DNA of 64,000 bases, taken from contig MU271158.1 of the NCBI GenBank assembly GCA_021432605.1, forward strand, positions 62,001 through 126,000. Reading direction: 5' to 3'. Origin of the DNA: Coniochaeta sp. PMI_546 (Eukaryota; Ascomycota; Sordariomycetes; Coniochaetales; Coniochaetaceae). Of the stretch, positions 7,114 to 42,804 are shown in pieces. The notes beneath the pieces were generated by a model that searched no databases, was not told the origin of the DNA, and worked only from the letters and a program-made list of their open reading frames with translations. How positions within the stretch are numbered: position 1 is the stretch's first letter; the number at the start of each line of letters is the position of its first letter. A program made the translations under genes and the position numbers.

Positions 7114-9358
7114 TCATCCGCACCCTATCGAGCTCGGGCACCCATCTACAATCATATCCCAGTCGTTCCAGGTTATCGCCGCCGGCGAGAGCCACTGTCT
7201 AGGCTGCAGTGTACATAAGAAAGCCTCAAGCTGTTGCGACGTCGTGTGCAGTAATGATGGCGAGTACGGCTGCCCTTCGGAGGCTCCCGACAGAGGCGGT
7301 GTGAGAGGGAGCAGTGTTTGTGGCATCTCATGCAGAGAATCATCCCTGCTCTGGGTAAGAGGACAGGAAGCCGCACTGTCACAGACGTTAGCACTAGGTC
7401 AAGCGCAGCGATACTGAGGTCAAGGGAAATCAGAAACTCACCTCAAATGCCTGAGAACGGGGGCTGCCTTCTCGCATATGCGGCTCCTGCCGGTCACCGC
7501 GATAGCCTCGAAGGTGCTTACGGAAGCCTCAAGTTCTTGCCGAAGAGATGCAAGGTAGTCTGCATCCAGGTCCGTGCTAGTCCCGCAGATATATGCAATA
7601 AACACAGCGGCGTGGAAGGCGTGAAAGCTCCCCAGACCGTGATTGTACCATTGATACGGACGGAAGGTATCGTTGTCGTAGAGGAGCCGGTGTATGCCGA
7701 GCAAAGCTGAAGCACTTTCGAGGCACCGGGTCCGCGATGAAACAACCTGGCCGGGTGCATACTGCTGGATTCTGGCGCCACCCTCTCTGTGAGCCTGCAC
7801 CAGGACAGGCCTGTGGAGAAGAAGGAAGAGCTGATGGGAGTAACCAAAGAGAATGTTCAGGTGTACGGCGTGGTGGCTTGGAAGGCTCGCGTGCCGGGTG
7901 TCACGCAGATATTTGAGATTCCATGCGTCTTGTTGGGCAGAGATCTCCCTGTCGAAATTCGATATGGCCTCGTAAGTCGGCAGGCTGTTCTCGGAGAACA
8001 GGTGAGTGCATATACGGGCGCAGATGTCATACAGCCGAAATTTGTATAGCAGGTACGACATCTGCGATGGAGCGTCACGGTGTTCCGCCGATGATTGCGT
8101 CGTTGCCGCTCCTGTTGTGAGCTGATCGTCATCTACGTCGAGGGGAAGCTTGACGCTGCCCCGGATGGGTACCGTGTCTATGCTTCCTAGGCACGTGTTT
8201 TGTATCATATAGAGCATCGTCAGCGCGGCCCAGCATCGCCGGCGCTGCTCTGCCTCCACCAGATCAAGGTCGAAGTACTCAGGATCCACGTGGCAGCCTA
8301 GCGAGAGGGCGACATTCCTCGTCAGGCCAAGTAGTGCCCAAGACTGGCCGTGGCTGTGGTTGATGCCGTAGATTAGAAGAATGAGCGTCTGCAGGGTTTG
8401 CAGGTTCTGTCTCCAAAGGTAGTGATCTCCTTCCAAGCACCGGAAAGCAGCAGCTCTGTAGCGTGACGTCAGGGTGGAGATGCTCTTCGACGCGTTGGAG
8501 CTTTTCCCAAGATCGCGAAGCAGATCGCTACCCTCGTCTAGAGCTGTTACCGCAATGCCCAGAACGGCAAAGAGCAGGGCGAGCCAAGAGAGAGGCGTGC
8601 TCTCAGGGTGCGCGCGGAATTGTGCGTAGTCGGCAAGGAAGGTCGGGTCATGCAAGACATGGAAAAGCTACGTCAGAGATCAGTTCACTCCTCTTCTACA
8701 TGTAAGGGGCTAGAAATCTCACCGGCGCAAAAACACTCATGTAGACATCCTTCAGCTGGTTACAGTGTGACATGGCGGGCAGGGCTGATAGGATGTCGTC
8801 AAGCTGAAACCTTCCTGTCGTGAAGGGAAACTCGGACTCTGCTGTTAAAGCATCAACCTCGCCGCTGATACTATCAGCCATCGGGCTGCTTGTCAGAACG
8901 GACGACCATCTTGAGGATAGTGGCTCGTAGCGTTCGTGGCCGGACGGCAACTTGACAAGGGAGCCTCGAGCACCACGGCTCCGCATCGAGGTGCGAGCCT
9001 GGGATCCGCCTGAATCATCAAAGGGTGATGAAGTTGCCGAAGTATCTGCCGTCGGCTGAAACGAGGTATCATTGGCGTCACCGCCGACGAGGCTCTCGAG
9101 CTTCCGAATCCGCTCCAGAAGCTCACTGTTGGTGGCCTCCTGACTCTGATCGGCCACGGCAGCTGTTAATACCTGAGGACGCGGAGCTCGCCGACTGTAT
9201 AAGTCCCGGAGGAACACACATTCGTCAGCGGGAACCCCTCGTCTCACGCAGGTTGCGCATGGACCGCCGGCGCTGCTTGATGTTCGAGGGCAGCGGATCT
9301 TGCGCTCCCGACACGGTTCGCAGCTCAGGGGCATACGCCGATTCACTTGCGTAGGCAT
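7114..9358 (-). CDS. Zn2Cys6 transcription factor with fungal-specific factor domain; likely regulator of the adjoining cluster
   Basis: Three exons, 9358-8723, 8667-7442 and 7375-7114, give 707 residues. The N-terminal binuclear zinc cluster has Cys13, 16, 23, 34, 37 and 47 (spacing C2C6C10C2C9C). A Ser-rich linker follows with a coiled segment around residues 80-95. The fungal transcription-factor middle homology region begins near FHVLHDPTFLADYAQF, formed across the first splice junction. A canonical GTGAGT donor falls at what would otherwise be the end of exon 2. Splicing it to a third exon restores the usual C-terminus (QWLSPAAITWNDWDMIVDG). An in-frame ATG at 9460 exists upstream, but 9358 puts the zinc cluster at the usual place and leaves a GCGGA repeat array in the 5' region. 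Its neighbours are a transporter and catabolic enzymes whose promoters carry the same repeats. Confidence 0.92.
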
Positions 9359-9410
9359 GTTAGTGTAGTCTTTGACTCTGTAGTTGTCAATACTCTCCGT
9401 GGTACAGAAG

Positions 9411-9440
9411 CCGCGGAGAATGCGGAGAGAGCGGAGATGG
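9411..9440 (+). promoter_or_regulatory. Three direct GCGGA repeats upstream of the Zn2Cys6 gene
   Basis: GCGGA begins at 9413, 9422 and 9431, an exact 9-nt period, 53-82 nt upstream of the chosen ATG of the regulator. The first copy sits in CGCGGAGAAT, which recurs exactly at 14371-14380. CGG is the half-site bound by Zn2Cys6 proteins, so autoregulation is a reasonable inference, not shown. Confidence 0.5.
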
Positions 9441-10108
9441 GCAGTGGAGTTATAACTCATATTTTGCCAGGGCAGTCAAGGCACCCCATCCTCCCATGAC
9501 AAACAAATTGCGTGCACTGGTGGAGGAATTGGTGTGGTGGAGAACCCCGGATTTCCACAAACGTCCCTACTAAGGTGCCTTACCTGCGGATCTTTGCGGG
9601 GAAGATGCACTGCAAGTGGGAATGACAACAGCAGGGTCACGCACTATACCACGGTCAAACAGAACCTTACGTTATGAGAACCAGGGCTACGAAGAAATCC
9701 ACAAATGCAGCTCCGCTGGCATAGTATAGTGAATATCCTTAAGATTGGCGAATGGCCTAAAGTTTAATTAGACGTGAGGATGAGACAGGAACACGGAATT
9801 CATTCAGTGATATGACCAGCAATCAACAGCATTCGTGTTCGCCTCGGATACGGTTTGGTACATCACACCACATGTAATTCCTATGCTAGTGGCCCCATAT
9901 CACGGGAAGTTTCTAGGCTTCAGACCTGGCCTAACCATCTGGTTGTTGAGCGGCATTCACACAAAATGTTCTCTGTCAAAACGAAAAAAAAAACTGGTCA
10001 AGAACACTCCATGAGAGGTCGGCTCTCAAGATTGTGTGACGTGCATTGCGCATCATATATCACATGTTGCTGGTCTCTTCACCCGTCTGACAAACACAAA
10101 GAAAATCC
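9441..10108. other. Intergenic, no gene recognised
   Basis: Promoter side of the regulator and 3' flank of the transporter. It contains a short A9 run near 9984-9992. Nothing else was seen. Confidence 0.6.
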
Positions 10109-10949
10109 TCATTGTTCCTTGGTAAGGGGAAAGACGGGAACAGTGAATGGCGTTGTGCCTCCCGCATAGAGCCCTGCGCAACCGGCCCAATCTGTAGAGA
10201 TAAAAGAGAGTCAGCAGTGTTTTTCTGCTTCTTAGAAGGATAGATACTTGCAGCTGAGAAAAGCGACGACATAGCCGCAAGCATAGCCTGCCGTTAATAC
10301 ACTCTGGCTTTCTACCATGTAGCCGACAGCAAGAAGAAGCAGACAGACATCCAGCGTGGCCAAGTCCAGTAGCAGAACCCATGAGCTGCGCACAGCAGCG
10401 ATGGTATATATGACGGTTAGGATGAACCAAGCCCACAGATAGAGGGATATGGACTGGCCAAAATCCGGACTCAATGCCCCAGTCTTCGCGTCAGTGTACG
10501 CAGCTATTATACCGGATCCAGGCAGGTAAATCATGCTGTAAGATAGGTTGAATGCGCCATACGAGGTGAACACCGTGGCACCAAAAGTATTTCCAGACAC
10601 GAACTCAAATATTCCGACAAGGTACTGGCATATGCCTCCAAAGAAGATTAAGACGGAGATCAGCACATTAGGTGTTTGGATCCCACGAGCATGGACACCG
10701 AAGCTCGATATAAGGAACATTCCTGTGAACTGTGATTAGACCTCTGGCTTTGCATAAACAATAGTATAAGATGGCCAACGCACCTGTTGCAAATGACAGC
10801 AGGCCAAGAGGAGAAGGGTTGGCGAGACGTCGGTGGATGACAGGAAGGGCAGGCTGGCTGCGATCCTCGATATGCCCGCCTGCCGTTCGAGCACGCTCCA
10901 GGTGCGAGTTATTACTGGAGGTTTCAATCTTGTAATCGGTAGAAGCCAT
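10109..10949 (-). CDS. GPR1/FUN34/YaaH (AceTr) family transporter, Ato-type
   Basis: Small six-helix membrane protein of the acetate/ammonium transporter-like family. Exons 10949-10784, 10722-10252 and 10191-10109 total 720 nt (239 residues). The signature NPSPLGLLSFAT in the first helix is clear, followed by LISSFGVHARGI and five more helices, ending with a C-terminal FTVPVFPLTKEQ of the family type. The second intron has to use a GC donor (GCAAGT) to keep frame, giving FLSYWAGCAGLY. No GT donor works. Family members move acetate or other small carboxylates. Its gene is divergent from the FAH/hydrolase fusion with 647 bp between, so uptake of a cluster substrate or handling of an acid product is an inference. 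Confidence 0.9.
10192..10251 (-). other. GC-AG intron in the AceTr transporter gene
   Basis: Sixty-nt intron starting GCAAGT, the classic GC-donor consensus, and ending CTACAG. A GTATCT two bases further in would shift the frame and lose the conserved final helix. The GC choice makes the three exons sum to 720 nt. Confidence 0.75.
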
Positions 10950-11311
10950 CGTGATGCAGTTGTTAGGGAAAGTGTTGGTGTAAAATGAGCTGGACTGTAT
11001 GAACCAACTGACAACGCTGATGCAGTCTGATCATGCCTTATATCAACATCGCTTATGCACGGCACTACCAGGTCCACTAAGCCAATTCGAAGGGATTTCC
11101 TCCCCCAGGCTTCAGGGTCGTTGCGCCAAGCGAAACCCTTGACCGTCGTCGGGACAGAATGCGCCCCATGCCATTCACTCAACTTGTCCGTTCCCCGGAT
11201 TCGTTCGAACGGAACGCGGCGAGGGTGCGGTGTTGTCTGTTGGTATCATGCTAGCGTGGTCTAGTACCCCCGGGTTCCTCGAATTGCATGAGTGTTAGCT
11301 GGGGCTGATCC

Positions 11312-11352
11312 TCCGCCAAGTCCGCGCATGTCCGCGCATGTCCGCCCTCCGC
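11312..11352 (-). promoter_or_regulatory. Array of five GCGGA sites in the divergent transporter/fusion promoter
   Basis: Read on the plus strand, TCCGC begins at 11312, 11321, 11331, 11341 and 11348, i.e. GCGGA on the minus strand with spacings of 9, 10, 10 and 7 nt. Two copies lie in a perfect 10-nt tandem duplication at 11321-11340. The array lies 245-285 nt upstream of the fusion gene's ATG and 360-400 nt from the transporter's. Confidence 0.5.
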
Positions 11353-11428
11353 TTGACCCACGCCTCAATTTTAGTTGCGCGGGGTTGAGTTGCTGACCAA
11401 ACGGCAGTCAAATTATCGACTGTCAATC

Positions 11429-11439
11429 GCGGAGGCGGA
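11429..11439 (+). promoter_or_regulatory. Paired GCGGA sites near the FAH/hydrolase fusion gene
   Basis: GCGGA occurs at 11429 and 11435 on the plus strand, about 160 nt upstream of the fusion gene's ATG. These two are in the orientation opposite to the five-copy array. Confidence 0.4.
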
Positions 11440-11596
11440 TCGATATCGAGCGCAGACAAGCTCAAGTGGAGTACTGGATCCTGGGAAGGCCTGCGAGGTG
11501 GCTAGTCTTTAAACATGTCGCAGAACGAGAGCTTTGGCCGCGCATTATCACCTGCAACTCCTATCCATCACGAACTACCGCAACAAAGCTAGCAAC

Positions 11597-13487
11597 ATGG
11601 GATCCCACACACAACACTTAACAAACTATGCCGCCTATGTCGACCCTGACACGGGGCTGCCGCGTGTCGGGCACCTAGACATTGACAACGATACACTGCA
11701 ACCTTTGAGTTTACTGTCGGGGACACCATTGCAGGATCTGTACCAGGTCATTGAGGCGGGATCATCAAACATCATTGCCGCTGGAAGCCCTATTCATGCC
11801 TCCACGGTGAAGAAGCTGCCGCCCCTTTCTGGACGCGATATCCTCGCCGTGGGGAAGAACTACATGGAGCACGCACGGGAGTTCAACAGTTCCGGGTACG
11901 ATAGCTCTGATAAGGTCGACCGACCGAGCCACCCTGTAATCTTCACCAAGAGAGCTACTTCTATCATTGCAGACGGTGAGGATATCTTCCCGCATGATGG
12001 ATTTACCGAAAGCCTCGACTATGAGGGCGAGATTGGTGTCATCATTGGCAAGTCAGGTTTCAGGATCAGCGAACAGGATGCATGGGCGCACGTCTGGGGC
12101 TATACCATCATCAACGATGTGACAGCTCGTGAGAGGCAGCGGGATCACAAGCAATTTTACATAGGCAAGTCGGCGGACACGTTCTGCCCCATGGTCAGTA
12201 CTCTTACTTGTGTCGGAGCGGGCATCGTTAGCTGACGCAGAGGTTGTATAAGGGTCCAATTGCCGTCCCCAAGGAGGACATGCCAGCAACACTCCGCGTA
12301 CAGACGCACGTCAATGGAGAGCTGCGGCAGGATGCAACCACTAAAGATCTCATCTTCTCGATTCCTACGCTGATTGCCAGCATGTCGGCGGGCCAGACCC
12401 TACAGTCCGGCGATGTATTGGCTACCGGAACGGTATGTAATCTTGCCCAGCACCGCTTCTTGTCTGTCGCGCAATTACTGAATCACCACAGCCTGCCGGC
12501 GTGGGTATCGGCAAGAAGCCGCCTATCTTCCTCCACCCCGGCGACGAGATCTCTGTCACTGTAGCAAGGCTCGGGACGCTCCGCAACAAGGTCGCTGCAC
12601 CCTCTGCTACCAACACGACCGTCGAACGCGTGGCGATGCACACCGTGTTCAGTCTGACCAATGCCGCCAAGACTATCAGTGGCAAGGTTGGACTGACAGA
12701 GATCAACGCGAAGCCACTGCACTATCAACGCCTTGGGTCGGGAAGCGAGTCTGTCGTCTTCGTTCACGGGCTCGGCGGGACCAAGGACTACTGGACGCCG
12801 CTCATCTCTGCCCTTTCTCTGTCAGACTCGGCTACCCTACACCTTTTTGACCTGGAGGGACATGGACTCAGCCCGACTCATCCCCTTAGCACGCTGACCA
12901 TTGAGTCATTGGCTGCCGACGTCGGCGGCGTGTTCCAAATCGCTGGTGTATCGTCTTCCAACCCAGCAACTCTCGTGGCTCATTCGATGGGTTGCCTTGT
13001 CGCCATGAGATTCGCGCTAGACAACCCAGACCTGGTGAAGAAGCTCATTCTTGTGGGCCCACCGCCATCTCCGCTTCCCAAGGCCGCAAGCGACGGCTCG
13101 TACGCTCGCGCTGCTTTGGCGAGGAGCAAGGGGATGAGTGCCGTGGTAGATGCTGTGGTGGGCGCAGGCACTTCTGAACGAACCAAGAAGGAGAATCCCG
13201 TCGCCGTGGCGGCCGTGCGTCTCAGTCTGCTGGGACAAGATCCGGAGTCGTATGCAAAGGCCTGCCAAGCCCTGGCTGGAGCGACGCAGTCTCTGGACGT
13301 GGAGCGTCTGGAGATGCCGACTCTGATCGTCACTGGAGACGAGGACAAGGTATCACCGCCTGCGCTCTGCGAGAAGTATGTAGGCAGGCTCAAGGATGCG
13401 CGACATGTGGTCTTGCAAAATACCGGTCACTGGCACGTGTACGAGGATGTTCAGGGAGTTGCACAGAGCTTGAAGGGTTTTCTGTAG
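11597..13487 (+). CDS. Fusion enzyme: fumarylacetoacetate-hydrolase domain plus alpha/beta hydrolase
   Basis: Three exons, 11597-12193, 12253-12432 and 12492-13487, give 590 residues. The N-terminal half is an FAH-superfamily fold (FAHD1/HpcE-like): GKNYMEHAREF, the acidic metal site in DYEGEIGVIIGK, NDVTARERQ and the GPIAV segment rebuilt by splicing to an AAG acceptor at 12250-12252. The C-terminal half, from about residue 335, is an alpha/beta hydrolase. It has oxyanion HGLGG, the nucleophile elbow AHSMG (Ser424), an acid near Asp544 in GDEDKVSP and His572 in TGHWH, and is closest in feel to 3-oxoadipate enol-lactonases. The join is in one exon without a stop, so the fusion is real in the DNA. 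Two-step lactone or C-C bond cleavage of a ring-cleavage product is inferred. The ATG at 11597 is the first in frame. Confidence 0.92.
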
Positions 13488-13682
13488 TTATGTTCCACAT
13501 TCTACATGCAGACAGAGATAGATAAATGGCTTCAAACTCGAAATACACGCCTTTCCTCTTACTACTTCGGGATTGAAACCCAAGTCAACTTAAGTCAACA
13601 CGTGTTACAATGCCAGTCACCATCATGTTCTAAGTCTTAGAGCGTCCATGTGGGACACGAGAAAAATGTAGCTACACAGGCG

Positions 13683-14141
13683 TCACAGGTAGTCTGCGCC
13701 CCAGGGCCTGAGACCCACGAACTTCGGCCTCTCCTTGAACTTGTTCCTCACCCCTGAGGTCCTGCCCACACGCAATACTCGCCCCTGTTGCAATTCCCCC
13801 TTCCCGTGAAATCGACGGAATTGCCAAGTGCAGTCATGGCCGCGGAAAGGCTGCAGAACATCTTGGCCACCAGGATGCTCGCTGATGAACTCTGTACAGT
13901 CGTAGATGATGTTGTCGATGACGAGCCAATGTCGCCCCGACATAGTTGATGCTGCCACTACTGACATGTGTATGAAGGGCAGCCCGTCATCCGGAACAGA
14001 TGGCGAGACAGAGCGATAACTCTCGGGGTTCTCGGGATCTTCGACAAGAACCACTGAAGCGCCAGACTCAAGGGTTGATTTGATGAGAGGTCTGCCCGGG
14101 GTCACGGCTTTGGTCTCGACGCTTCGATGCATCCACCCCAT
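13683..14141 (-). CDS. Stand-alone cytochrome b5-like heme protein
   Basis: Single exon, 152 residues. A cytochrome-b5 domain occupies about residues 70-130: HWLVIDNIIYDCTEFISEHPGG. The likely axial ligands are His89 (HPGG) and His112 (RFHGKG), 23 apart, close to the usual 24. There is no signal peptide and no C-terminal membrane anchor, so a soluble electron carrier is expected. The first 65 residues match nothing I recognise. It is tail to tail with the FAH/hydrolase fusion (195 nt between stops) and head to head with the amidohydrolase, sharing its promoter. A redox partner for an oxygenase elsewhere in the genome is possible, since none lies in this window. Confidence 0.85.
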   Translation of the reverse strand: MGWMHRSVETKAVTPGRPLIKSTLESGASVVLVEDPENPESYRSVSPSVPDDGLPFIHMSVVAASTMSGRHWLVIDNIIYDCTEFISEHPGGQDVLQPFRGHDCTWQFRRFHGKGELQQGRVLRVGRTSGVRNKFKERPKFVGLRPWGADYL

Positions 14142-14360
14142 GGTCGGTCGATGGCAGAAGCTAAGAAGAAAGGTGTTGGACTGGTTCGATGACCTGTGGG
14201 TGGAAGCGGCTTGTCCAGATCACTCATTTCTGGGTTTCCAGCGCGTCTCATCACTGGCATTAGCCCCTTTCCTCGTCATGTCCGAGACACGCCTTTGTCA
14301 ATTTGTCCGTGAGAGCTCCGTCGCATTCCCGCCATGGCCGCATGCTGCAGTGGGGTACAG

Positions 14361-14380
14361 CGCGGAGAAGCGCGGAGAAT
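14361..14380 (+). promoter_or_regulatory. Tandem CGCGGAGAA repeat between cytochrome b5 and amidohydrolase genes
   Basis: Two adjoining 10-nt units, CGCGGAGAAG then CGCGGAGAAT, lie near the middle of the 549-bp divergent promoter. The second unit is identical to 9412-9421 in front of the Zn2Cys6 gene. The same 10-mer also occurs once inside a coding exon at 54711-54720, so it is not unique to promoters. Confidence 0.5.
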
Positions 14381-14690
14381 GGCGCAGATCGTCAGGTCAA
14401 CACGAGTTCCGGGTTGTCGGTTCTGCACTAACGGGCTGACTTACAGACTACTGTGACTTAGCAGTTTCCCCGCATCTGCTTCCCCATGGGGTAGACAGGT
14501 GACCCCTTGAGACCGTGACACAGCAGAAGCGGACTTGAGACGGGACTCTGCAGACATTGCGAGGAAGTAAAAGATGAGTTAAAGATCATTGGGGGATCCA
14601 ACGTCCCAGAGACAAAGTGTCCTTATCACGGCCCAAAGAAGCTGTACCTACCAGTACCACAGGTTAATTACCCAGATTTATTTTCGGATC

Positions 14691-16523
14691 ATGGCTGCGA
14701 CAGTTAGAACGCCAGGTACGGTGTCATGGGAGTCGTGGTCTCTCGACGACTTGAACAAGGCCGGCACCGCGAGGCACTCCGAAGGCTTTCCTCGAAACGT
14801 TGCTTACATCGAGAACCTCAGACTCGACCCAGACTTACAACCAGCCAAGTATGAAATTTCCGGTACTCATCCCCAATCGAAAATCCTCATCACAAATGTC
14901 AAGATCCTCGATTCCACAGGTAGAGAGCCGTATTTGGGTGATGTGTTGATCCAAGGTATGTTTGCCTCGCAGGAAGGTGGGCAGGACACGTTCACAAGCA
15001 CTTACTCAACGTTAACAGGCGAGAGAATTGCTGCTGTCGGTGATGTGCCAAATAAGACCGATCTAGAAAAAGACCCTACAGTCAGGGTCTTCAGCGGGAA
15101 AGGACGGACGCTCATGTCCGGGCTCGGAGATGGTCACACCCACTTTACTTGGAACGGTGGCGACCTTGCGAAGCTGGGCGAGCTAGGCGTCGAAGAACAC
15201 GTTCTCTTGACAGTGAAGAGCGCACAGTGCTTCTTAGACTCGGGCTATACAATGTATGTACCCAATCATCATCTTCTCAATGTCTGAACCGGACTGAAAC
15301 AATCGCTAGGTGCTTCGGGGCTGCATCTGCGAAAGACAGACTTGACGTGGTGGTGCGGGACGCCATCAATGCTGGAGATGTTCCGGGCCCACGGTACCTC
15401 GCAAACGCCAGGGAGATTGCTAAGCCCGAGGGCGAGCTGGTCGCCAGCATTACTGCGTTCGCCGAAGGCGCCGAAGGTCAGTGAGTCCGCATGAATCCAA
15501 ACTTGAGACAGAGAACTGACGAGACTCGGCAAGGCATGCGCAACGTTGTCAGGCACAACATTCAAGATATTGGCGTCGATAACGTCAAGCTCAGTATGTC
15601 TGGAGAGGACATTTGCGAGAGCCGCTCGGCGCAAGACTGCTTCTTCACGGACGAAGAGACGGAAGCAGCCGTTGATGAAGCGCACAAGTATAAGAAGCGG
15701 GTGTGTGCGCATGCGAGAGCGCGAGACTCTGTGACCATGTGCATTCGCCATGGCGTGGACGTAATATTCCATGGATCGTATGTCGACGATGAAGGTATGA
15801 TGTGTGGTCCTGGACTCAGATCCTGGACTGTATCCTTGAGTTCATCAGGGCGCTGACGTTGACCGTGCACCGTAGGTATGGAAATGCTGGAGAAGACAAA
15901 GCATAAGCAGCTCGTCGTTCCAGCCATCAACTGGCTCTGGGCTACGTCGTTCGAGGCCGAAGCTTTTGGATACAGCCACGAAGCAGCTGAGAAGGCAGGG
16001 TATAGAAGGGAGCTAGAGATTGCCGTCGCAGGGCTGCGTGAGATGCACCGGCGCGGGATCGTAGTCCTCCCTGGAGGGTAAGATGTCGTCCATACCCGGT
16101 ACGAGAACCTACAAGATCACTAACCTGTGTAGCGACTATGGCTTTGCCTGGACACCTCATGGAACATATGCCCGGGACCTCGAACATTTTGTAAAGCTTC
16201 TGGACTTCACTCCACATGAAGCTATCATCGCTGCCACGGCAGGAGTTGCCGCACTTATGATGAGAGGCCACGAGCTGGGTAAGATCCAGCGGGGATACTA
16301 CGCCGACTGCATCCTCGTCAACGGCGACCCACTAGAGGACATCACCGTCCTGCAGGATCACGACAAGCTGGACGTCATTCTCATCAACGGGAGAGTGCAC
16401 AAGGCGGGTCGGAAGGAATACATCATGGACACGTCTGGCACTTTGTCTGCTGGTATAAATAGCACCAAGCATCTGGAGGTGGACTTCCCGGAAGCGAAGG
16501 CAGCGATGCAGAAAGCGTATTGA
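14691..16523 (+). CDS. Metal-dependent amidohydrolase (imidazolonepropionase/prolidase-like)
   Basis: Six exons, 14691-14955, 15019-15253, 15310-15476, 15534-15794, 15876-16077 and 16133-16523, sum to 1521 nt (506 residues). It is a TIM-barrel amidohydrolase with the HxH metal motif in GDGHTHFTW, later metal/active-site candidates in CAHARARD and VIFHGSY, and an acidic GGDYGFAW near the barrel end. The C-terminal beta-sandwich is typical (GKIQRGYYADCILVNGDPLEDI). No signal peptide, so cytosolic. Such enzymes hydrolyse cyclic or linear amides and peptides, and the substrate cannot be named. Divergent from the cytochrome-b5 gene with shared GCGGA repeats, so it probably belongs to the same regulon. 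The ATG at 14691 is preferred over an in-frame non-ATG extension. Confidence 0.9.
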
Positions 16524-21860: not shown

Positions 21861-22889
21861 GTCAGTGACTTGATACAGGCAGGCTCCAGAGCTGGGGCAA
21901 CAATACCTGTTGACTGGCAGATTTCAAGACGACGCCAAAAGAACAGCCGCATTCGACAAAGGCTGCGCGTTGATAGAATGGTGACGGCAACGATGAAGAC
22001 TGCGGGGATGAGAGCTCGCCGTAGTAAACACGTGTAATTGCTCAACGAACAGTCAAGGCTTGGAGCGGTCGTTGGATGGTAAAGGCAACCGGCAGTCTTT
22101 TACTGCATCACGAAGATGAATAAAATTAAAACAAATATCACGCCGGCCTCTGCAGGGCAAAACTCGCAGGGTAGGAATGCGTGGCGTTTTGCGTGTCTTT
22201 ACTGCCCGATTCCAAGCCCGTAGGGAGGAACGGAAATCACACCCGAGGCAGAGACGACATTTTCGGTCAAATTCGGTGAATGGCACTGAACAGCACCGAC
22301 TGCACACAGCCTAAACCACGTCTCAGAAGGTGTATGAGATTCCGCCCGGCGAGTGTGGCATCACACTCCACTGGCTTCAATGGCCTTAATGACAATCAAG
22401 CCCGCAAACATCAAACATGGTACCTTAGTACACTGGGTCAAACCCCTGGCAAACAAACGCTGTTAGGATCAGGTAAAAGTCGTCGCATCGACAAGTTGGG
22501 GTTCGTGCAAAGTCACGAGGTGTACTGGACGTAGATGGTCGTCGTATGACTGTGGTTCCCATATTCGTCACACCACCCAAGATTCCGAACGTCCGAGGAA
22601 AGTATGATTGAATGAGACTCATGATGGCGTGGTTCAGAAGTGGACTTTATAACTGCCGGCATATCAGTCGTTCCCCTGGCGGTGCGTGCTTACTCGGAGC
22701 GCTTTATTGACAATAACTATACGCCTTCACAATGCCTAAGAAGAGAAGCTTTCTCTGGAATCTACAGGACTAGCTTCAAATCATAGGGCGGACACGATTC
22801 TTCTTTGCAACAAGTTGCTGATCGATGGGAGAAGATCCATCTCTCTACACGTCAAACGCCGACAATTCGATACACAAGAATCTCAAAAC
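21861..22889. other. Intergenic between the hydrolase relic and ppsA
   Basis: A hydrophobic frame at 21842-22045 (minus) might be the old N-terminus of the hydrolase relic, but it does not connect cleanly. The rest is promoter of the PEP synthase gene. Confidence 0.45.
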
Positions 22890-25289
22890 ATGGCAGCTGC
22901 TGGTGTTCCTGGGGACCTGGTCCGTAATTTCGAGGACCTGAGGCGTGGCGATGTTGGCGTGGTTGGTGGAAAAAACTCGTCACTTGGCGAGATGATCAGT
23001 GCCCTCGAGGCCAAAGGAATTGCCGTCCCGACGGGGTTTGCGACCACTGCGGCTGCATATTGGCACTACGTCGACGCCAATGGCATCCGTGACAAGATAG
23101 CTGCATTAGTGACGGAATGGCAAGAGGGTAAACTGACTCTAGCTGAGACGGGCCATATGGTGCGCAGCTTGTTCATCCGCGGTACCTGGCCAGCTGATAC
23201 AGCCGCCGCCATCAGGAAAAGTTATCACGAGCTCTCGACCAAGGCCGGAATTGCGGACCTGAGTGTTGCCGTTCGCTCCAGCGCGACGGCCGAGGACCTA
23301 CCGGACGCAAGCTTTGCCGGCCAGCAAGAGACTTATCTGAACATTTCGGGTGTCGACGCGCTCTTGGATGCTTGTCGCCGCTGCTATGCTTCGCTTTTCA
23401 CCGATCGGGCCATCAGCTACCGTCAAGTTAAGGGCTTCGATCATATGAGCGTTGCACTCTCGATTGGCGTACAACGCATGGTTCGCTCTGATCTCGGTGG
23501 CTCCGGCGTCATGTTCTCCATCGACACGGAAAGCGGCTTCGACAAGGTTGTGCTGATCAACGCAGCGTGGGGGCTTGGTGAGAATGTTGTCCAGGGCACC
23601 GTCAATCCAGATGAATATCAAGTCTTCAAGCCACTCCTAGGCAATGCCAAAACAGTTCCTATCTTAGAGAAGAAACGCGGCGACAAGGAGATCAAGATGG
23701 TCTATGGCAATAGACAAATGCCCACACGAAACGTGCCTACCTCAAAGGCAGAGCGAGCCGCGTTGGTGCTCAATGATAACGAAATCCTCCAATTGGCACG
23801 TTGGGCATGCACCATCGAGCAGCACTATGGGCAGGCGATGGACATGGAATGGGCCAAGGATGGTGTCACGGGCCAGCTATTCATTGTCCAGGCTCGGCCC
23901 GAGACTGTGCACTCACGCCGTGATGCTGCTGCCGTCTTCAAGACGTACAAGGTCAGCAACAAGAGCCGCGTGCTCGCCACTGGCCGTTCGATCGGCGATT
24001 CGGCCGTATCAGGCCAGATCTGCCTCATCGAATCCACCAAGGACATCGACAAGTTTGTGGATAACTCGATTCTGGTGACGCAAGCGACGGACCCGGATTG
24101 GATGCCTATCATGAAGCGGGCCGCGGCCATCATCACCGACCACGGCGGGCGGACCTCACATGCTGCTATCGTGAGCCGAGAATTAGGTCTCCCCGCAATA
24201 GTAGGCACCGGCAACGCTACCTACGTGCTGCACAGTGGCCAAGAGGTTACCGTCGACTGTGCCGAGGGAGACACGGGCTTCGTGTACGAGGGCATATGCG
24301 ACATCGCAACTGAGTCGACAGATCTGTCCGAGCTGCCCGACGTTCGAACCCACATCATGCTCAATCTAGCCGACCCGGCGTCTGCATACCGCTGGTGGCG
24401 ACTCCCAGCCGATGGCATCGGCCTTGCACGCATGGAGTTTGTCGTCAGCAACGCCATCCGGGTCCACCCAATGGCGCTTGTGCACTTTGACCAGTTAAAG
24501 GATGCAGCTGCCATACGTGAGATTTCTCAACTTACAACAGGGTATGACAGCAAGCCCGACTACTTTGTCGACAAATTATCGCACGGTCTTGCGGCCTTAT
24601 GCGCTGCGGTCTATCCCAAGCCGGCCATAATTCGCATGAGCGACTTTAAAACGAACGAGTACGCCAACCTCATAGGCGGTGCTCAGTTTGAGCCCAAGGA
24701 GGAAAACCCCATGATCGGCTTCCGTGGTGCCTCACGCTACTACTCGCCGCTCTACAAAGAAGGGTTCGAGCTGGAGTGCCGCGCCATCAAGCGACTGCGC
24801 GAGGAGATAGGTCTCACCAACGCCGTCATCATGATCCCTTTCTGCCGGACAATCCACGAAGCCAAGAAGGTTCTAGACGTCATGGCCGACAACGGGCTCA
24901 AGCGGGGCGAGAATGGATTGCAAGTCTACGTCATGTGCGAGATCCCGTCCAACGTCATCCTAGCCGCCAACTTCACCGAGCATTTCGACGGCTTCTCCAT
25001 CGGCTCCAACGACCTGACGCAGCTCACCCTAGGTGTAGACCGCGACTCTGGTGAGCTCTCTGACCTCTTCGACGAGCAGGACGAGGCCGTCAAGTGGATG
25101 ATCGCGCGCGTTATCTCGGTGGCCCGCCAGAAAGGTTGCAAGATTGGCCTCTGTGGACAGGCGCCGAGCGACCATCCGGAATTCGCCAAGTTTCTCGTTG
25201 AAGCCGGTATCGATTCCATCTCCGTAATTCCCGACAGCTTCGTCGCGGTGAAAAGGCATGTCATTGCCAGCGAGCGAGCACTGGCATAA
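22890..25289 (+). CDS. ppsA: Phosphoenolpyruvate synthase, bacterial type
   Basis: Converts pyruvate, ATP and water to PEP, AMP and phosphate, feeding gluconeogenesis. Single exon, 799 residues, about the length of bacterial PpsA. The order is an ATP-grasp pyruvate-phosphate dikinase N-domain (about 15-345, with VGGKNSSLGEM and VRSSATAEDLPDASFAGQQET), a swivelling phosphohistidine domain with GGRTSHAAIVSRELGLPAIVG (His424, equivalent to E. coli His421) and a PEP-binding TIM barrel with GSNDLTQLTLGVDRDSG and GLCGQAP (Cys755). ATG 22890 is chosen because the upstream in-frame extension starts at TTG. Lack of introns amid intron-rich genes and the rarity of this enzyme in fungi suggest transfer from a bacterium. 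Tail to tail with L-lactate dehydrogenase. Confidence 0.96.
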   Translation: MAAAGVPGDLVRNFEDLRRGDVGVVGGKNSSLGEMISALEAKGIAVPTGFATTAAAYWHYVDANGIRDKIAALVTEWQEGKLTLAETGHMVRSLFIRGTWPADTAAAIRKSYHELSTKAGIADLSVAVRSSATAEDLPDASFAGQQETYLNISGVDALLDACRRCYASLFTDRAISYRQVKGFDHMSVALSIGVQRMVRSDLGGSGVMFSIDTESGFDKVVLINAAWGLGENVVQGTVNPDEYQVFKPLLGNAKTVPILEKKRGDKEIKMVYGNRQMPTRNVPTSKAERAALVLNDNEILQLARWACTIEQHYGQAMDMEWAKDGVTGQLFIVQARPETVHSRRDAAAVFKTYKVSNKSRVLATGRSIGDSAVSGQICLIESTKDIDKFVDNSILVTQATDPDWMPIMKRAAAIITDHGGRTSHAAIVSRELGLPAIVGTGNATYVLHSGQEVTVDCAEGDTGFVYEGICDIATESTDLSELPDVRTHIMLNLADPASAYRWWRLPADGIGLARMEFVVSNAIRVHPMALVHFDQLKDAAAIREISQLTTGYDSKPDYFVDKLSHGLAALCAAVYPKPAIIRMSDFKTNEYANLIGGAQFEPKEENPMIGFRGASRYYSPLYKEGFELECRAIKRLREEIGLTNAVIMIPFCRTIHEAKKVLDVMADNGLKRGENGLQVYVMCEIPSNVILAANFTEHFDGFSIGSNDLTQLTLGVDRDSGELSDLFDEQDEAVKWMIARVISVARQKGCKIGLCGQAPSDHPEFAKFLVEAGIDSISVIPDSFVAVKRHVIASERALA

Positions 25290-30736: not shown

Positions 30737-30807
30737 GCATCAGTGGTTTAGTGGTAAAATCCATCGTTGCCATCGATGGGCCCCGTGTTCGATTCACGGC
30801 TGATGCA
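30737..30807 (+). tRNA. tRNA-Gly (GCC)
   Basis: A 71-nt cloverleaf: acceptor GCATCAG pairs with CTGATGC, D-arm GTTTAGTGG, anticodon stem CATCG/CGATG with loop TTGCCAT (anticodon GCC), T-arm CCGTG-TTCGATT-CACGG and discriminator A. No intron. A run of six T follows directly. Confidence 0.95.
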
Positions 30808-30809
30808 CA

Positions 30810-39036: not shown

Positions 39037-41355
39037 TCATGTTCCGTTCTCGTACCCTGCACCACGCTGCCAGGGACTAGTACAGACCAACACGTTAGCA
39101 CAATTAAGTCCATTGATAAGCAAGCTCTTGTCAGGCGGTACATACCTAGGATTATTTTCCGTCCGATTATGATGCAACCTTGATCCGTTCGCCGAGTAGA
39201 GCGACGGGTCAGAGTATGAGCCCGAGTCCCGCATAGGGGATACCTGGTACCTCCTGTGGTCTTCTGATACTCCGCCCTCAGCCGGATCCTGACCGAACGG
39301 TGCAGGGGAGCTGTGGCGGTCGCGGTAGGAAGCAGACGCTGAGGACATGCTGGGCTTTTCGTAAACGTGTCTGCCGCGAGCATCGGAGGACTCGTAGTCA
39401 TCGTCGTCAAGCAGGTCCACGTGGTTCTTCGCACCACGAGCCGTGACAGCCAGCGCATCCAGCTCGGGGTTGGTGCCGAGGTTCGTCTGCGACTTGATGA
39501 AGGACGTCCGGTCGTCCAACATGTATTGGTAGCGGTTGTCCGGGTTTTTCTGGAAGAAGATTATGATGGTTGTGATGATAAGCATCAGGAGTAGGACGAG
39601 AGCAAAGACGTTGTTGAGGATCCACAACACGACTCCGATCACGCCTGTTACCAATGGTGGCTGGTCGAACACGTTCGTGAAGATGAGAAGGAAGACGGCG
39701 TTGATAAAGTTGATGGCGTAGATGGAAATGTTGAACGAGTTGGTGCTCTTGTCCATCCATGGCCGCAGTACACTCGCTGCGATGAGAGCGGCTGCCTCGA
39801 TAAGTATAAGGGCAATGGCTTGCAAAGTTCCCTTGTCCTGTGCAAGAGCGATAAACATAGACTTGATCAAGACGTGGCCGAGGACGGGAGCGAAGAAGTA
39901 GTACCCAGACGCTCGGTAGGGTACGTATAGGAAACCCCATTTGTTGAGGGTCTGCGGATCGGAGAAGAGGATATAGGCCGGATTTCGGTGGAGGCTGATG
40001 GAGCGGCGCGCGATACTGATGATTTTGAAAGCGGCATATCCAAGAAGGGCGAGGGTCCCAAAGAAGAAGAAAATGGCCAGGACGACCTCGGCTGCCGAGT
40101 CGCGCTGCGTCAGCTCCCAGAGGCAAAGGATGGAGACGACCGGGAACCCTATCAGGCACACGCGGTAGAGAATGCCCTTGAGGACAGTCCTCCAGCCGTT
40201 GCGGAATTCGAGAAATGCGTCGCCCTTGGCTAGGAACCCACAGCAAAGCCTGAAGATGAGGACAAACAGGGCGCTGAAGACGATAAAGATGCAGAAGAAG
40301 GTCAAGCCGGTCATGAAGAGGTTGGTGGACTCGATACCGGCCGCAAAAGCGACCCTCTGGATCCCGTATACGACATAGCTTCCGGAACCGGTCTGTATAT
40401 TCGCTCGTTTGGCGAGAGCAGCCGCGGCTGGTGTAAGAGCTTTCGGGGACATGGCGGCTGCCCTGGAGAAGAGGGTTCCTGCCGATTGAACGACCTGGAC
40501 TTGACTCAAGTCTCGCTTCTCCACCTGCACAGAAGTGGTCGTCAGAGTATCAAAGAGGGTCGAGGGCGTGCCACCGGTTGCACGCTGATACCATGTGAAT
40601 ATCTGCTGCATAAAGTCGACCTTGATGATGCCCATGCTCCACTGGAAGTCCTGAGTCCACGCTCGGGCGACAGGGGGCAGCCTAATGCCAGTCAAGCCAA
40701 GCATGGCCTGGGCCTGAAAGTAGCCAAACAAGGAGACGGCTCCGGCCGCGATATGCGAGGCCGCGTTTGTGTGGCCGAGACCCGAGACCAGCGCAGATGA
40801 CAGAAGCGCGAGGATGGCCACAGCAGCCGTCGCCCACTTCACGCCAGCAAGATTGATCGTCTTGCCGTTCGATATGTTGGCCTCGACACACGCCGCACTA
40901 TGTCCAGCCTCGTCTCCTTCAGTCATATTGATGTAGATTCGAGCCGTGGCATCGAGGTCGGGGAAGGTGTAGGCGATGCCTGGGATCTGGCTGGTGGCCG
41001 ACTTGTCGATCTGGATGTTGAAAGGCAGCACGAGGTTTCCGGCCCTCATAGGGCACAAGCCGGCCAGGTCGCTGTTGGGGTCGCACGGGTCGATCGTCCT
41101 CCGCAGGAACTCGTAGCCGTAGGCTGATATGGCGACATCGAAGACAACCTTCCCTGTTATGGAGCTGACGGCGACGATGTTGGCAGACACGGTGCCATTG
41201 TTTGGGGTGAAGACGAAGTTGAAAAGTCTTGCCGTGAAGCCCGAGTTGTCCTGGCAGGTGTTCAGCGAGCTGGAATGGAGCAGCGGCTCGTCCGCGACGA
41301 CCGACGGGAGAAAGACGGCGGCCGAGAGAAGGACGGCTGCGATTGACCGTGACAT
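39037..41355 (-). CDS. TRP-like/flavin-carrier (FLC) family membrane protein
   Basis: Exons 41355-39146 and 39076-39037 give 749 residues. The signal peptide ends at VVADEP. An ML-like lumenal domain (about 20-170, N-glycosylation sites such as NMT and NIS) is followed by about nine to ten membrane helices and a hydrophilic, Ser/Asp-rich cytosolic tail with several acidic residues in a row (DLLDDDDYESSD). This is the PF06011 TRP layout of yeast Flc1-3, linked to FAD uptake into the ER, cell-wall upkeep and calcium homeostasis. A 69-nt intron near the end (GTATGT to CTAG, with GCTAAC) is inferred because its removal gives SPWQRGAGYENGT. Since it is a multiple of three, retention would also stay open. 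ATG 41376 is a possible alternative start. Confidence 0.92.
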   Translation of the reverse strand: MSRSIAAVLLSAAVFLPSVVADEPLLHSSSLNTCQDNSGFTARLFNFVFTPNNGTVSANIVAVSSITGKVVFDVAISAYGYEFLRRTIDPCDPNSDLAGLCPMRAGNLVLPFNIQIDKSATSQIPGIAYTFPDLDATARIYINMTEGDEAGHSAACVEANISNGKTINLAGVKWATAAVAILALLSSALVSGLGHTNAASHIAAGAVSLFGYFQAQAMLGLTGIRLPPVARAWTQDFQWSMGIIKVDFMQQIFTWYQRATGGTPSTLFDTLTTTSVQVEKRDLSQVQVVQSAGTLFSRAAAMSPKALTPAAAALAKRANIQTGSGSYVVYGIQRVAFAAGIESTNLFMTGLTFFCIFIVFSALFVLIFRLCCGFLAKGDAFLEFRNGWRTVLKGILYRVCLIGFPVVSILCLWELTQRDSAAEVVLAIFFFFGTLALLGYAAFKIISIARRSISLHRNPAYILFSDPQTLNKWGFLYVPYRASGYYFFAPVLGHVLIKSMFIALAQDKGTLQAIALILIEAAALIAASVLRPWMDKSTNSFNISIYAINFINAVFLLIFTNVFDQPPLVTGVIGVVLWILNNVFALVLLLMLIITTIIIFFQKNPDNRYQYMLDDRTSFIKSQTNLGTNPELDALAVTARGAKNHVDLLDDDDYESSDARGRHVYEKPSMSSASASYRDRHSSPAPFGQDPAEGGVSEDHRRYQVSPMRDSGSYSDPSLYSANGSRLHHNRTENNPRYVPPDKSLLINGLNCANVLVCTSPWQRGAGYENGT

Positions 41356-42804
41356 GGTCACTGTTGAGGCCCACATTGCGCCTCAAATGCGAGCGATCAT
41401 CGACGACGACAGAGCGAGCTGTCGGTGCAGGCCACGGTATTGCGTCGATATATATATGATCTTCACAGGCAATCCTCGACGCTTAACGTGCCGCCAATGA
41501 TGGTTGTCGGCGAGATTCCGTATGTGTCGTGTCGTCAGCGACCTGAGGAAATATTTATCGGGACCTGATCCCGGACAGCAGGATCGGATGTGACGGCGAC
41601 AGAAACGAGTGTCCTATTACTGGCCTGGTTCGTCTAAACGATGGTGTTCATAACGAGAGTCATGTCCGCAAAGAGGGCTTCGTCGTGTGGTTGAGGTTGT
41701 CGCGACAAAGCCAGGAGGAAGCGGGAGTTGATACGTGTAGGGATAGATTGAAATGCTGGGACGCTGGAATGCTGCAGCATGTCGGATGACGGATGACGGA
41801 GCGCATCATTCAGCGCATCAGTCAGTCCCAAGTTCACACCCAAAGTCGGGGCCAAGTCAGTGGCGCAGTTCTCGTATTCAAGGCTTTTACGGCAGCAGGG
41901 AATCAACCCCGCAAAGTTAGGCGAGTACTCCTCCCATTGCCTCAGATTGCACTGCATAAGAAGTACACATTTAGCCACATTTCACTGCAAAACCTGGAAT
42001 AAGTAGGTACCTCTAACCAAACGACCTCTACGCGCTAGAGATCACGAGAGGAATTCCTGTACGAGAGAATCACCACTGCTTGGCATGGAGAGACGCGTAC
42101 GCAGATGGCACCACGCTGCACCTGCACTGCATCACCTTCGGCCCTGGAAAAACACACAGTGGTGACAGTGTTATATCGTATTGAACCTTTCCGACGGTTC
42201 AGCCCTGCCTGGCGTGCCTCGACTCTACCTGCTCCCTGGGTTACCGCATATGCCACCGGAGCCATGTGGGGAAGAAACAAAGCTTGGCAGGCAGTGGGAA
42301 CCCCTCCGCATTCAGCGGGAGACATCTCCGCAAGCAGCCTAGCCGAGCAAAGTAACGCTGCAGATTCACGATCCAGTCATCGAGACATCGAGACGGCCTC
42401 GTACTATCTACGACGTGCGACCAACAATTTCGAGATCTGTGATGAATGAAGAATATAGGAAATTTAGCACTGACTGTTAATTTGAATAGCATCTGGCACG
42501 CACAAACAAGGATTATCGACATACAAGATTCGACTAACTGACTGCGTGCCTGACTTGCAGTCAAACGACGACGACAACAGCGGGACAAAATACTACCGCC
42601 ATGCTGAACCGCTGATGCACTCTTCCTCATCTGGATAGGCGTCTGCAACGAACAAAGGCTTATCACGTCAGCCCGGTCGCTTATCACGCAATGTCCTTCA
42701 GCGACGACCATATTCTTCATAATGGCGCCGTTTATATGCTGCGAGATTTCTCGAAAAGCCTCGAGAAGCTGTCAGGAATGTAGCTTCTCTTCTCGGTCAC
42801 CAAG
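41356..42804. other. Divergent promoter region, no gene recognised
   Basis: About 1.4 kb between the TRP-like gene and the BTB-like gene. It includes an alternating TA run at 41449-41458 and a near-tandem TGACGGATGACGGA at 41784-41798. Frames here are short and unsupported. Confidence 0.55.

What the first reader, a model, noticed from the sequence alone, without database searches (positions are those of the whole stretch)
7114..16523. Likely uncharacterised catabolic cluster under one Zn2Cys6 regulator
Five neighbouring genes form a self-consistent set: regulator, small-acid-type transporter, FAH/alpha-beta hydrolase fusion, soluble cytochrome b5 and amidohydrolase. Gene content points to breakdown of a cyclic compound through amide or lactone hydrolysis and C-C bond cleavage. 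The arrangement uses two divergent promoters, and I know of no described pathway with this gene set.
Basis: partly seen in the sequence, partly recalled or inferred. Interest (0 to 1): 0.75.

Follow-up and report, generated by a model that had tools for sequence, protein, structure and literature searches.

The report
Conserved fungal-bacterial three-hydrolase gene cluster
Five neighbouring genes in a Coniochaeta-like fungus form a real, apparently jointly controlled gene cluster whose three degradative enzyme parts also sit side by side in many soil bacteria, so it is probably an old, borrowed pathway for breaking down a compound that has not yet been identified.

Summary
In detail: five intact genes fill 7114-16523 (Zn2Cys6 regulator, GPR1/FUN34/YaaH transporter, FAH-alpha/beta-hydrolase fusion, short cytochrome b5, amidohydrolase). 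The grouping exceeds chance. All six GCGGA-N4/5-GCGGA matches of the window lie in the cluster's three promoter regions (0.22 expected). In other Pezizomycotina, fusion and amidohydrolase are tightly linked in 14 of 24 species named in both homologue lists, and the regulator with one of them in 17 of 34. In Aspergillus nidulans, consecutive genes of the fusion, cytochrome b5 and amidohydrolase families all fall in a napA mutant (PMC5371717). New here: bacteria, mostly Actinobacteria, carry FAH, hydrolase and amidohydrolase contiguous in that order (66 of 74 judgeable loci), usually beside a GntR-type regulator; the fungal protein fuses the first two. Catalytic residues are kept. Best reading: a bacterial hydrolytic operon acquired by an early fungus and placed under a fungal regulator reading tandem GCGGA repeats; it cuts an amide, then an ester or enol-lactone, then processes a keto acid. 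Direction of transfer and binding of the repeats are inferred.

The parts
7114..9358 (-). Zn2Cys6 regulator, 707 aa from the start at 9358 (741 aa from 9460); introns 8668-8722 and 7376-7441
   Evidence: Models; Pfam (on the 741-aa version); start by C. ligniaria orthologue
9413..9435 (+). Three tandem GCGGA repeats (9-bp period), 55-77 bp upstream of the regulator's start
10109..10949 (-). GPR1/FUN34/YaaH (acetate/small-acid type) transporter, 239 aa; introns 10723-10783 and 10192-10251 (the latter GC-AG)
   Evidence: Models; Pfam 224.2 bits
11312..11345 (-). Four tandem GCGGA repeats (9-10-bp period) in the divergent transporter/fusion promoter, 252-285 bp from the fusion's start and 363-396 bp from the transporter's
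11597..13487 (+). FAH-alpha/beta-hydrolase fusion, 590 aa; introns 12194-12252 and 12433-12491
   Evidence: Model; Pfam; homologues; folds
13683..14141 (-). Short soluble cytochrome b5, 152 aa, no intron; His89 and His112 fit the two heme ligands (ligand roles recalled)
14362..14376 (+). Two tandem GCGGA repeats (10-bp period) in the divergent cytochrome b5/amidohydrolase promoter, 221 and 315 bp from the two starts
14691..16523 (+). Amidohydrolase, 506 aa, five introns (14956-15018, 15254-15309, 15477-15533, 15795-15875, 16078-16132)
   Evidence: Model; Pfam; homologues; folds

Best explanation
The five genes are a self-regulated catabolic cluster. Its enzymatic core (FAH domain, alpha/beta hydrolase, amidohydrolase) is shared with a bacterial operon best represented in Actinobacteria. 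An early filamentous fungus most likely acquired that core, with FAH and hydrolase as one protein, and put it under a fungal Zn2Cys6 regulator; a cytochrome b5 and a small-acid transporter joined. The regulator most likely binds tandem GCGGA direct repeats (9-10-bp period) in its own promoter and in the two divergent promoters, so that the five genes switch together. Proposed chemistry: the amidohydrolase cuts an amide (its structural neighbours act on dipeptides or N-acyl amino acids); the PcaD-like domain cuts an ester or enol-lactone; the YisK/FAHD-like domain tautomerises, decarboxylates or cleaves the resulting keto/enol acid; the transporter moves a small acid; cytochrome b5 serves an oxidative step encoded elsewhere. 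Shown: genes, shared repeats, linkage, operon homology, intact catalytic residues. Inferred: regulator-repeat binding, direction of transfer, order of steps. Unknown: the substrate.
For: Repeats confined to the three promoters, few in the genome (270 double matches in 33.5 Mb; six triple matches at five places, two of the places here), and the only repeated 5-mer common to the three. Tight linkage of fusion and amidohydrolase in 14 of 24 species, of the regulator with either in 17 of 34 (hand count from the best 120 rows each). Joint napA dependence of AN2777, AN2778, AN2779. Bacterial FAH-hydrolase-amidohydrolase order in 66 of 74 judgeable loci, fused in 9; GntR-type regulator near FAH in 64 of 70. 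Amidohydrolase and hydrolase catalytic residues in 16 of 16 fungal and 39 of 39 bacterial rows; FAH residues in 39 of 39 and at least 15 of 16. Fungi one clade, support 100, in both trees.
Against: No substrate, no induction data for this fungus. Genes on different contigs in 4 of 24 and 6 of 34 species. The repeat pattern was chosen after inspection; genome-wide it is rarer than its reversed control (270 against 361; triple 6 against 8), so it is not a generally enriched signal. Repeats were not checked in relatives (no DNA available). The A. nidulans data concern one mutant and spores. Transfer is not proved: Actinobacteria apart from fungi is not rejected (p-AU 0.265). Cytochrome b5 and transporter have no match in 80 of 80 bacterial loci. 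No oxygenase sits beside the cytochrome b5.
Confidence: 0.6

Rival explanations
1. It is a detoxification cluster: a plant or microbial lactam, lactone or amide is hydrolysed to harmless products, as FDB1 and FDB2 do for 2-benzoxazolinone, rather than a nutrient being used.
For: Hydrolase-rich fungal clusters respond to lactams and lactones; an FAH-family gene next to a C6 regulator (FVEG_03394, FVEG_03393) is raised by 2-benzoxazolinone in Fusarium verticillioides (PMC10512309, passages), though I did not test whether it is an orthologue. The amidohydrolase folds like ochratoxin-hydrolysing enzymes. AN2777-AN2779 depend on the stress regulator NapA.
Against: Conserved as a three-enzyme operon in bacteria with varying transporters, and a keto-acid-processing FAH domain is more than detoxification needs. 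No efflux pump among the five genes.
Confidence: 0.2
2. It salvages or repairs a metabolite made inside the cell (for example a damaged or N-acylated acid), and is not for an outside compound.
For: FAHD/YisK enzymes are oxaloacetate tautomerases and are discussed as repair enzymes (PMC10825186, passages); the amidohydrolase family is also in Trichophyton rubrum and the regulator family in T. interdigitale and Microsporum, fungi that do not live on plants (recalled).
Against: A transporter and a dedicated regulator in the cluster and transporter genes near some bacterial operons suggest an outside compound.
Confidence: 0.12
3. The enzymes are one real pathway but the fungal set was inherited vertically from an ancestor shared with bacteria, not transferred.
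For: Direction is not proved: root unknown, long fungal branch, Actinobacteria as one group not rejected (p-AU 0.265).
Against: The best amidohydrolase rows listed are filamentous fungi (two Agaricomycetes among those named) and the tree places fungi among Actinobacteria (supports 88 and 81, quick tree).
Confidence: 0.15
4. The five genes are chance neighbours.
For: The transporter's linkage outside this genome was not tested, and regulator or enzymes lie apart in some species.
Against: Shared promoter repeats, linkage across several fungal classes, joint napA dependence in A. nidulans, and the bacterial operon.
Confidence: 0.03

Closest known systems
AN2777-AN2778-AN2779 of Aspergillus nidulans (uncharacterised)
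   Same: Consecutive genes of the same three families (FAH + alpha/beta hydrolase, cytochrome b5-like, amidohydrolase), lowered together in a napA mutant (PMC5371717, passages)
   Different: No substrate or regulator named there; regulator and transporter neighbours not seen; orthology not tested by sequence
Bacterial FAH / alpha-beta hydrolase / amidohydrolase operon beside a GntR (FCD) regulator, mostly Actinobacteria (unnamed)
   Same: Same three enzyme families in the same order (66 of 74 judgeable loci); amidohydrolase 44-64% identical; catalytic residues identical
   Different: FAH and hydrolase are separate in 57 of those 66; regulator of another family; no cytochrome b5 or GPR1-type match in 80 loci
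Bacillus subtilis YisK (FAHD family)
   Different: Stand-alone enzyme; here fused to a hydrolase in a cluster; activity not known
PcaD 3-oxoadipate enol-lactonase
   Different: The C. hoffmannii orthologue scores 103.8 against a curated cut-off of 255.85 (TIGR02427)
Prolidase / arginine carboxypeptidase / ochratoxin amidohydrolases
   Different: The Xaa-Pro dipeptidase model scores 175.7 against a cut-off of 500 for the C. hoffmannii orthologue; substrate unknown
FDB1/FDB2 benzoxazolinone clusters of Fusarium
   Same: Fungal hydrolase-rich clusters with a fungal-type regulator (PMC10512309, passages)
   Different: FDB1 contains the metallo-beta-lactamase MBL1, absent among the five proteins here

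Membership tests
Fungal catabolic cluster under a pathway-specific Zn2Cys6 regulator | Regulator and enzyme genes physically linked, in relatives too | tested here: met
   tight in 17 of 34 species for the regulator, 14 of 24 for fusion with amidohydrolase; apart in 6 and 4
Fungal catabolic cluster under a pathway-specific Zn2Cys6 regulator | Shared cis-acting site in the promoters | tested here: met
   Sequence only, no binding assay:
Fungal catabolic cluster under a pathway-specific Zn2Cys6 regulator | Joint expression | tested here: inconclusive
   Three A. nidulans genes of these families change together in one mutant (PMC5371717); none measured in this fungus
Fungal catabolic cluster under a pathway-specific Zn2Cys6 regulator | Induction by, and growth on, one substrate | not testable with these tools
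   Needs experiments
FAHD/YisK-type FAH domain | Fold and sequence relation | tested here: met
FAHD/YisK-type FAH domain | Metal-site acids and His-Glu pair (roles recalled) | tested here: met
   H92, E95, E143, E145 in 16 of 16 fungi and 39 of 39 bacteria; D174 in 15 of 16 and 39 of 39
Fumarylacetoacetase (tyrosine/phenylalanine pathway) | Curated equivalog TIGR01266 | tested here: not met
   Not among the 23 families listed for the C. hoffmannii orthologue at E <= 0.001
HpaG 4-hydroxyphenylacetate degradation enzyme (a name given to several orthologues) | Curated equivalog cut-offs | tested here: not met
   153.1 against 276.4 (TIGR02303) and 130 against 811 (NF011750) for the C. hoffmannii orthologue
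PcaD 3-oxoadipate enol-lactonase | Curated equivalog cut-off TIGR02427 | tested here: not met
   103.8 against 255.85 bits for the C. hoffmannii orthologue
Alpha/beta hydrolase (C-terminal domain) | Ser-Asp-His triad | tested here: met
   S424, D544, H572 in 16 of 16 fungi and 39 of 39 bacteria; roles recalled
Amidohydrolase superfamily with two-metal site | HxH, Lys, His, His, Asp ligands | tested here: met
   H128, H130, K241, H282, H302, D378 in 16 of 16 fungi and 39 of 39 bacteria; they align with 2qs8; roles recalled
Xaa-Pro dipeptidase | Curated equivalog cut-off NF051886 | tested here: not met
   175.7 against 500 bits for the C. hoffmannii orthologue
Ochratoxinase / ochratoxin A amidohydrolase | Hydrolysis of ochratoxin A | not testable with these tools
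   Only the fold is shared: 22-28% identity
FDB1 benzoxazolinone cluster | Metallo-beta-lactamase gene MBL1 | tested here: not met
   No such domain among the five proteins

The most novel reading that the evidence does not exclude
An actinobacterial three-hydrolase operon was taken up by an ancestor of the Pezizomycotina, arriving with or acquiring an FAH-hydrolase fusion, and was rewired to a eukaryotic Zn2Cys6 regulator reading tandem GCGGA repeats. It encodes an undescribed, widespread route for an N-acylated natural compound in which amide hydrolysis, ester or enol-lactone opening and keto-acid processing run in series, two of the steps in one polypeptide, with a dedicated cytochrome b5 for an oxidative step that fungi added.
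Probability: 0.4. Interest if true: 0.72.

Novelty: new member of a known kind. Interest (0 to 1): 0.56.

Why it matters
A three-enzyme module kept together both in soil Actinobacteria and in filamentous fungi must do something common in soil or litter, yet the searches made here named no substrate on either side. Fusion and amidohydrolase have no close second copy in this genome, and A. nidulans has genes of the same families side by side, so a few deletion strains, a growth panel and two purified enzymes could name a new pathway. It is also a compact test case of how a bacterial operon becomes a fungal regulon. Names now carried by many of these proteins, such as 'bifunctional 4-hydroxyphenylacetate degradation enzyme', fail the curated test made here.

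Tried and rejected
Substrate by gene neighbourhood: bacterial neighbours beyond the core vary. Branched-chain-type ABC transporter parts in Azospirillum, Reyranella and Noviherbaspirillum loci and also in L096; a flavin reductase in L060, L063, L066, L068 and L087; a POT-family transporter, Asp/Glu racemase and aldehyde dehydrogenase in Corynebacterium hylobatis; a class-III aminotransferase in some Actinomycetospora loci and L105. No single substrate emerged. My gene calling in these GC-rich loci was rough, so the counts rest on tblastn.

Wider regulon: the stricter pattern GCGGASAN{2,3}GCGGA has 42 sites in the genome (reversed control 41). Two lie about 3 kb from other GPR1-family genes; one proved to be inside an open frame, the other about 2.6 kb upstream. 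Of the three triple places elsewhere, two are inside long coding frames (L010, L011) and one (L009) is in an open frame that may be intergenic. Dropped.

Different regulator in Fusarium sp. AF-6: my first comparison used only the N-terminal exon and could not show it. A full comparison with the C. ligniaria orthologue gives 28% identity over 249 residues, against 48% for the linked F. falciforme regulator: same family, more distant, partial model.

Named families: NCBIfam gave no match over its cut-off for the seven enzymes scanned (two C. hoffmannii orthologues, five bacterial), and none for this window's cytochrome b5; regulator and transporter were not scanned there.

Papers: the only paper with most of the gene set is the NapA paper. 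PMC10512309 (abstract and passages), PMC12746152, PMC12625717, PMC7842363 and PMC8929692 were seen as passages and concern other gene sets. AN2779 is listed as raised in A. nidulans on suberin, apparently in the column that holds alcR (PMC4117967, passages): a hint only. The AN2779 match in PMC3415456 was false. A search on AlcR and GCGG repeats found no paper; the likeness of these repeats to AlcR sites is recalled, not tested.

Origin: whether the fungal fusion descends from the bacterial fused form is open: held together with it the tree is 3.74 log units better, p-AU 0.552.
Full report
WHAT THE WINDOW IS. It is contig 16, bases 62001-126000, of a fungal genome of 33.5 Mb in 24 contigs. The closest named proteins are from Coniochaeta: 83% and 82% (fusion, C. 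hoffmannii and C. sp. 2T2.1), 86% (amidohydrolase, C. hoffmannii), 82% (regulator, C. ligniaria).

THE OBSERVATION. Order: regulator (-), transporter (-), FAH/alpha-beta-hydrolase fusion (+), cytochrome b5 (-), amidohydrolase (+). One transporter intron has GC-AG ends. The regulator's start is moved to 9358, where the C. ligniaria orthologue starts. Other matches in the own genome are partial: at most 46% identical for the fusion, 33% amidohydrolase, 39% cytochrome b5, 41% transporter (a short piece), 32% regulator.

SHARED PROMOTER SITES. GCGGAN{4,5}GCGGA matches 6 times in the window, some overlapping, at 9413-9435, 11312-11345 and 14362-14376; mean of 100 shuffles 0.22, largest 2. The genome has 270 matches, against 361 for the reversed control pattern. 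At that rate the three regions together expect 0.016, and a match in each by chance has a probability near 1e-7 if sites fall at random. The triple repeat matches six times, at five places, two of them here (reversed control: 8 matches). I chose the pattern after looking. A test naming no pattern found GCGGA and its complement the only 5-mers repeated with a 4-5 nt spacer in all three regions; 1 of 2000 random triples of equal-length pieces of window 17000-64000 shares any (the random pieces include coding sequence). The repeat lies 55-77 bp upstream of the regulator's start, which suggests self-regulation (inference).

LINKAGE IN OTHER FUNGI. No fungal genomes could be searched, so I read locus tags and contig lengths by hand in the best 120 rows of the three homologue searches (of 1114, 3563 and 195 hits). 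Tight means tags at most 12 apart or one contig of at most 350 kb. The contig shown is the longest of a 90% cluster, so strains may be mixed. Fusion and amidohydrolase: 24 species are named in both lists. Tight in 14 (C. hoffmannii, Fusarium ambrosium, F. floridanum, F. nematophilum, Neocosmospora mangrovei, Thozetella, Dactylonectria estremocensis, Cosmosporella, Coniosporium, Ophiostoma, Paecilomyces variotii, Oleoguttula, Dothideomycetes NU459, Pycnora); same longer contig only in 3 (Clonostachys chloroleuca, Sarocladium, Mytilinidion); different contigs in 4 (Nemania NC0429, Neonectria punicea, Talaromyces rugulosus, and Thermocarpiscus on short contigs); undecided, different assemblies, in 3 (F. 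keratoplasticum, F. oxysporum, Bipolaris maydis). Regulator with fusion or amidohydrolase: 34 species. Tight in 17 (Dactylonectria, Thermocarpiscus, F. falciforme, F. torreyae, Trichoderma arundinaceum, Ophiostoma, F. venenatum, F. nematophilum, Thermoascus crustaceus, Pycnora, F. sporotrichioides, Diplogelasinospora, Exophiala, N. punicea, Coleophoma, Colletotrichum somersetense, Neophaeococcomyces); same longer contig in 5; different contigs in 6 (four Aspergillus species, Paraphoma, F. longipes); undecided in 6. A Colletotrichum jinshuiense gene model runs from the fusion into the amidohydrolase (P0100; the second part is 67% identical over 278 residues to the C. hoffmannii enzyme). A Fusarium sp. 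AF-6 model joins the amidohydrolase to a more distant regulator of the same family (P0219, 28% over 249 residues to the C. ligniaria regulator), so regulators may have been exchanged.

EXPRESSION. In Aspergillus nidulans, AN2777 (FAH, alpha/beta hydrolase fold), AN2778 (cytochrome b5-like) and AN2779 (dipeptidase, amidohydrolase) have consecutive numbers and all stand in the table of transcripts lowered in napA-deleted conidia (2.0, 2.0, 2.2 in its logFC column), a table of 201 genes (PMC5371717, abstract and passages). The family order is that of this window. Orthology was not tested by sequence, and the passages I saw do not discuss the three genes together.

THE BACTERIAL OPERON. An FAH-domain match is present in 72 of 80, a hydrolase match in 73, cytochrome b5 and GPR1-type matches in 0. 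Six loci have too little upstream sequence; of the other 74, 66 have FAH, hydrolase and amidohydrolase contiguous in that order on one strand, 3 have another arrangement, 5 lack one. In 9 of the 66 the first two are fused (Nocardiaceae and one Streptomyces). A GntR-type match lies within 2.2 kb upstream of FAH in 64 of 70 loci that could be judged, divergent in 56 (the three GntR queries carry GntR and FCD domains). The fungal fusion therefore joins operon neighbours, and the amidohydrolase beside it completes the set.

ORIGIN. Fungi form one clade with support 100 in the amidohydrolase tree (20 fungal, 46 bacterial rows) and in the three-protein tree (16 and 39). In the first they sit among Actinobacteria (SH-aLRT 88 and 81, quick tree); Proteobacteria, Bacteroidota and some other Actinobacteria lie outside, with the root at the midpoint only. 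In the second the fungal branch is long. Actinobacteria apart from fungi is not rejected (p-AU 0.265); fungi with the fused bacterial form is 3.74 log units better but undecided (p-AU 0.552). Transfer from an actinobacterium is my reading, not a proof.

HOW IT MOST LIKELY WORKS. Shown: co-located genes, shared repeats, intact catalytic sites, a conserved three-enzyme core. Inferred: the regulator binds the repeats and raises all five genes; the transporter moves a small acid; the amidohydrolase frees an acid from an amide; the hydrolase domain opens an ester or enol-lactone; the FAH domain finishes on a keto/enol acid; cytochrome b5, absent from the bacterial loci, serves a step that fungi added. 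The amidohydrolase in Trichophyton rubrum (P0239) and the regulator family in T. interdigitale and Microsporum argue against a substrate found only in plants.

VERDICT. The cluster is real and, as far as the searches made here show, uncharacterised: a new member of a known kind (a Zn2Cys6-linked catabolic cluster), made more interesting by its bacterial operon counterpart.

Noticed in passing
22740-25289 (+): One intron-free frame of 849 aa (stop to stop) with all three domains of a phosphoenolpyruvate synthase/pyruvate phosphate dikinase; unusual for a fungus (recalled) and perhaps another bacterial acquisition.
   Followed up: no
57758-58567 (-): Coenzyme A transferase domain, a possible keto-acid CoA-transferase gene; not linked to the cluster by the repeat.
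   Followed up: no
P0267, P0269, P0270, P0279 (Fusarium), P0271 (Talaromyces islandicus), P0277 (F. avenaceum): Gene models that join the regulator to a pyridine-nucleotide oxidoreductase, a TauD-type dioxygenase or a short-chain dehydrogenase (domain lists): possible extra cluster genes in other fungi, one perhaps a partner for the cytochrome b5.
   Followed up: partly
P0216, P0225: Amidohydrolase about 70% identical in Neolentinus and Heliocybe, basidiomycetes (recalled): a possible fungus-to-fungus transfer; they branch near the base of the fungal clade.
   Followed up: no
L081, L083-L087, L089, L101, L103: FAH-hydrolase fusion also exists in Nocardiaceae and one Streptomyces.
   Followed up: partly
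30737-30808 (+): tRNA-Gly (gcc), the only tRNA and the only Rfam match of the window.
   Followed up: no
39037-41382 (-): TRP-like ion channel with an ML-like domain in one long open frame.
   Followed up: no
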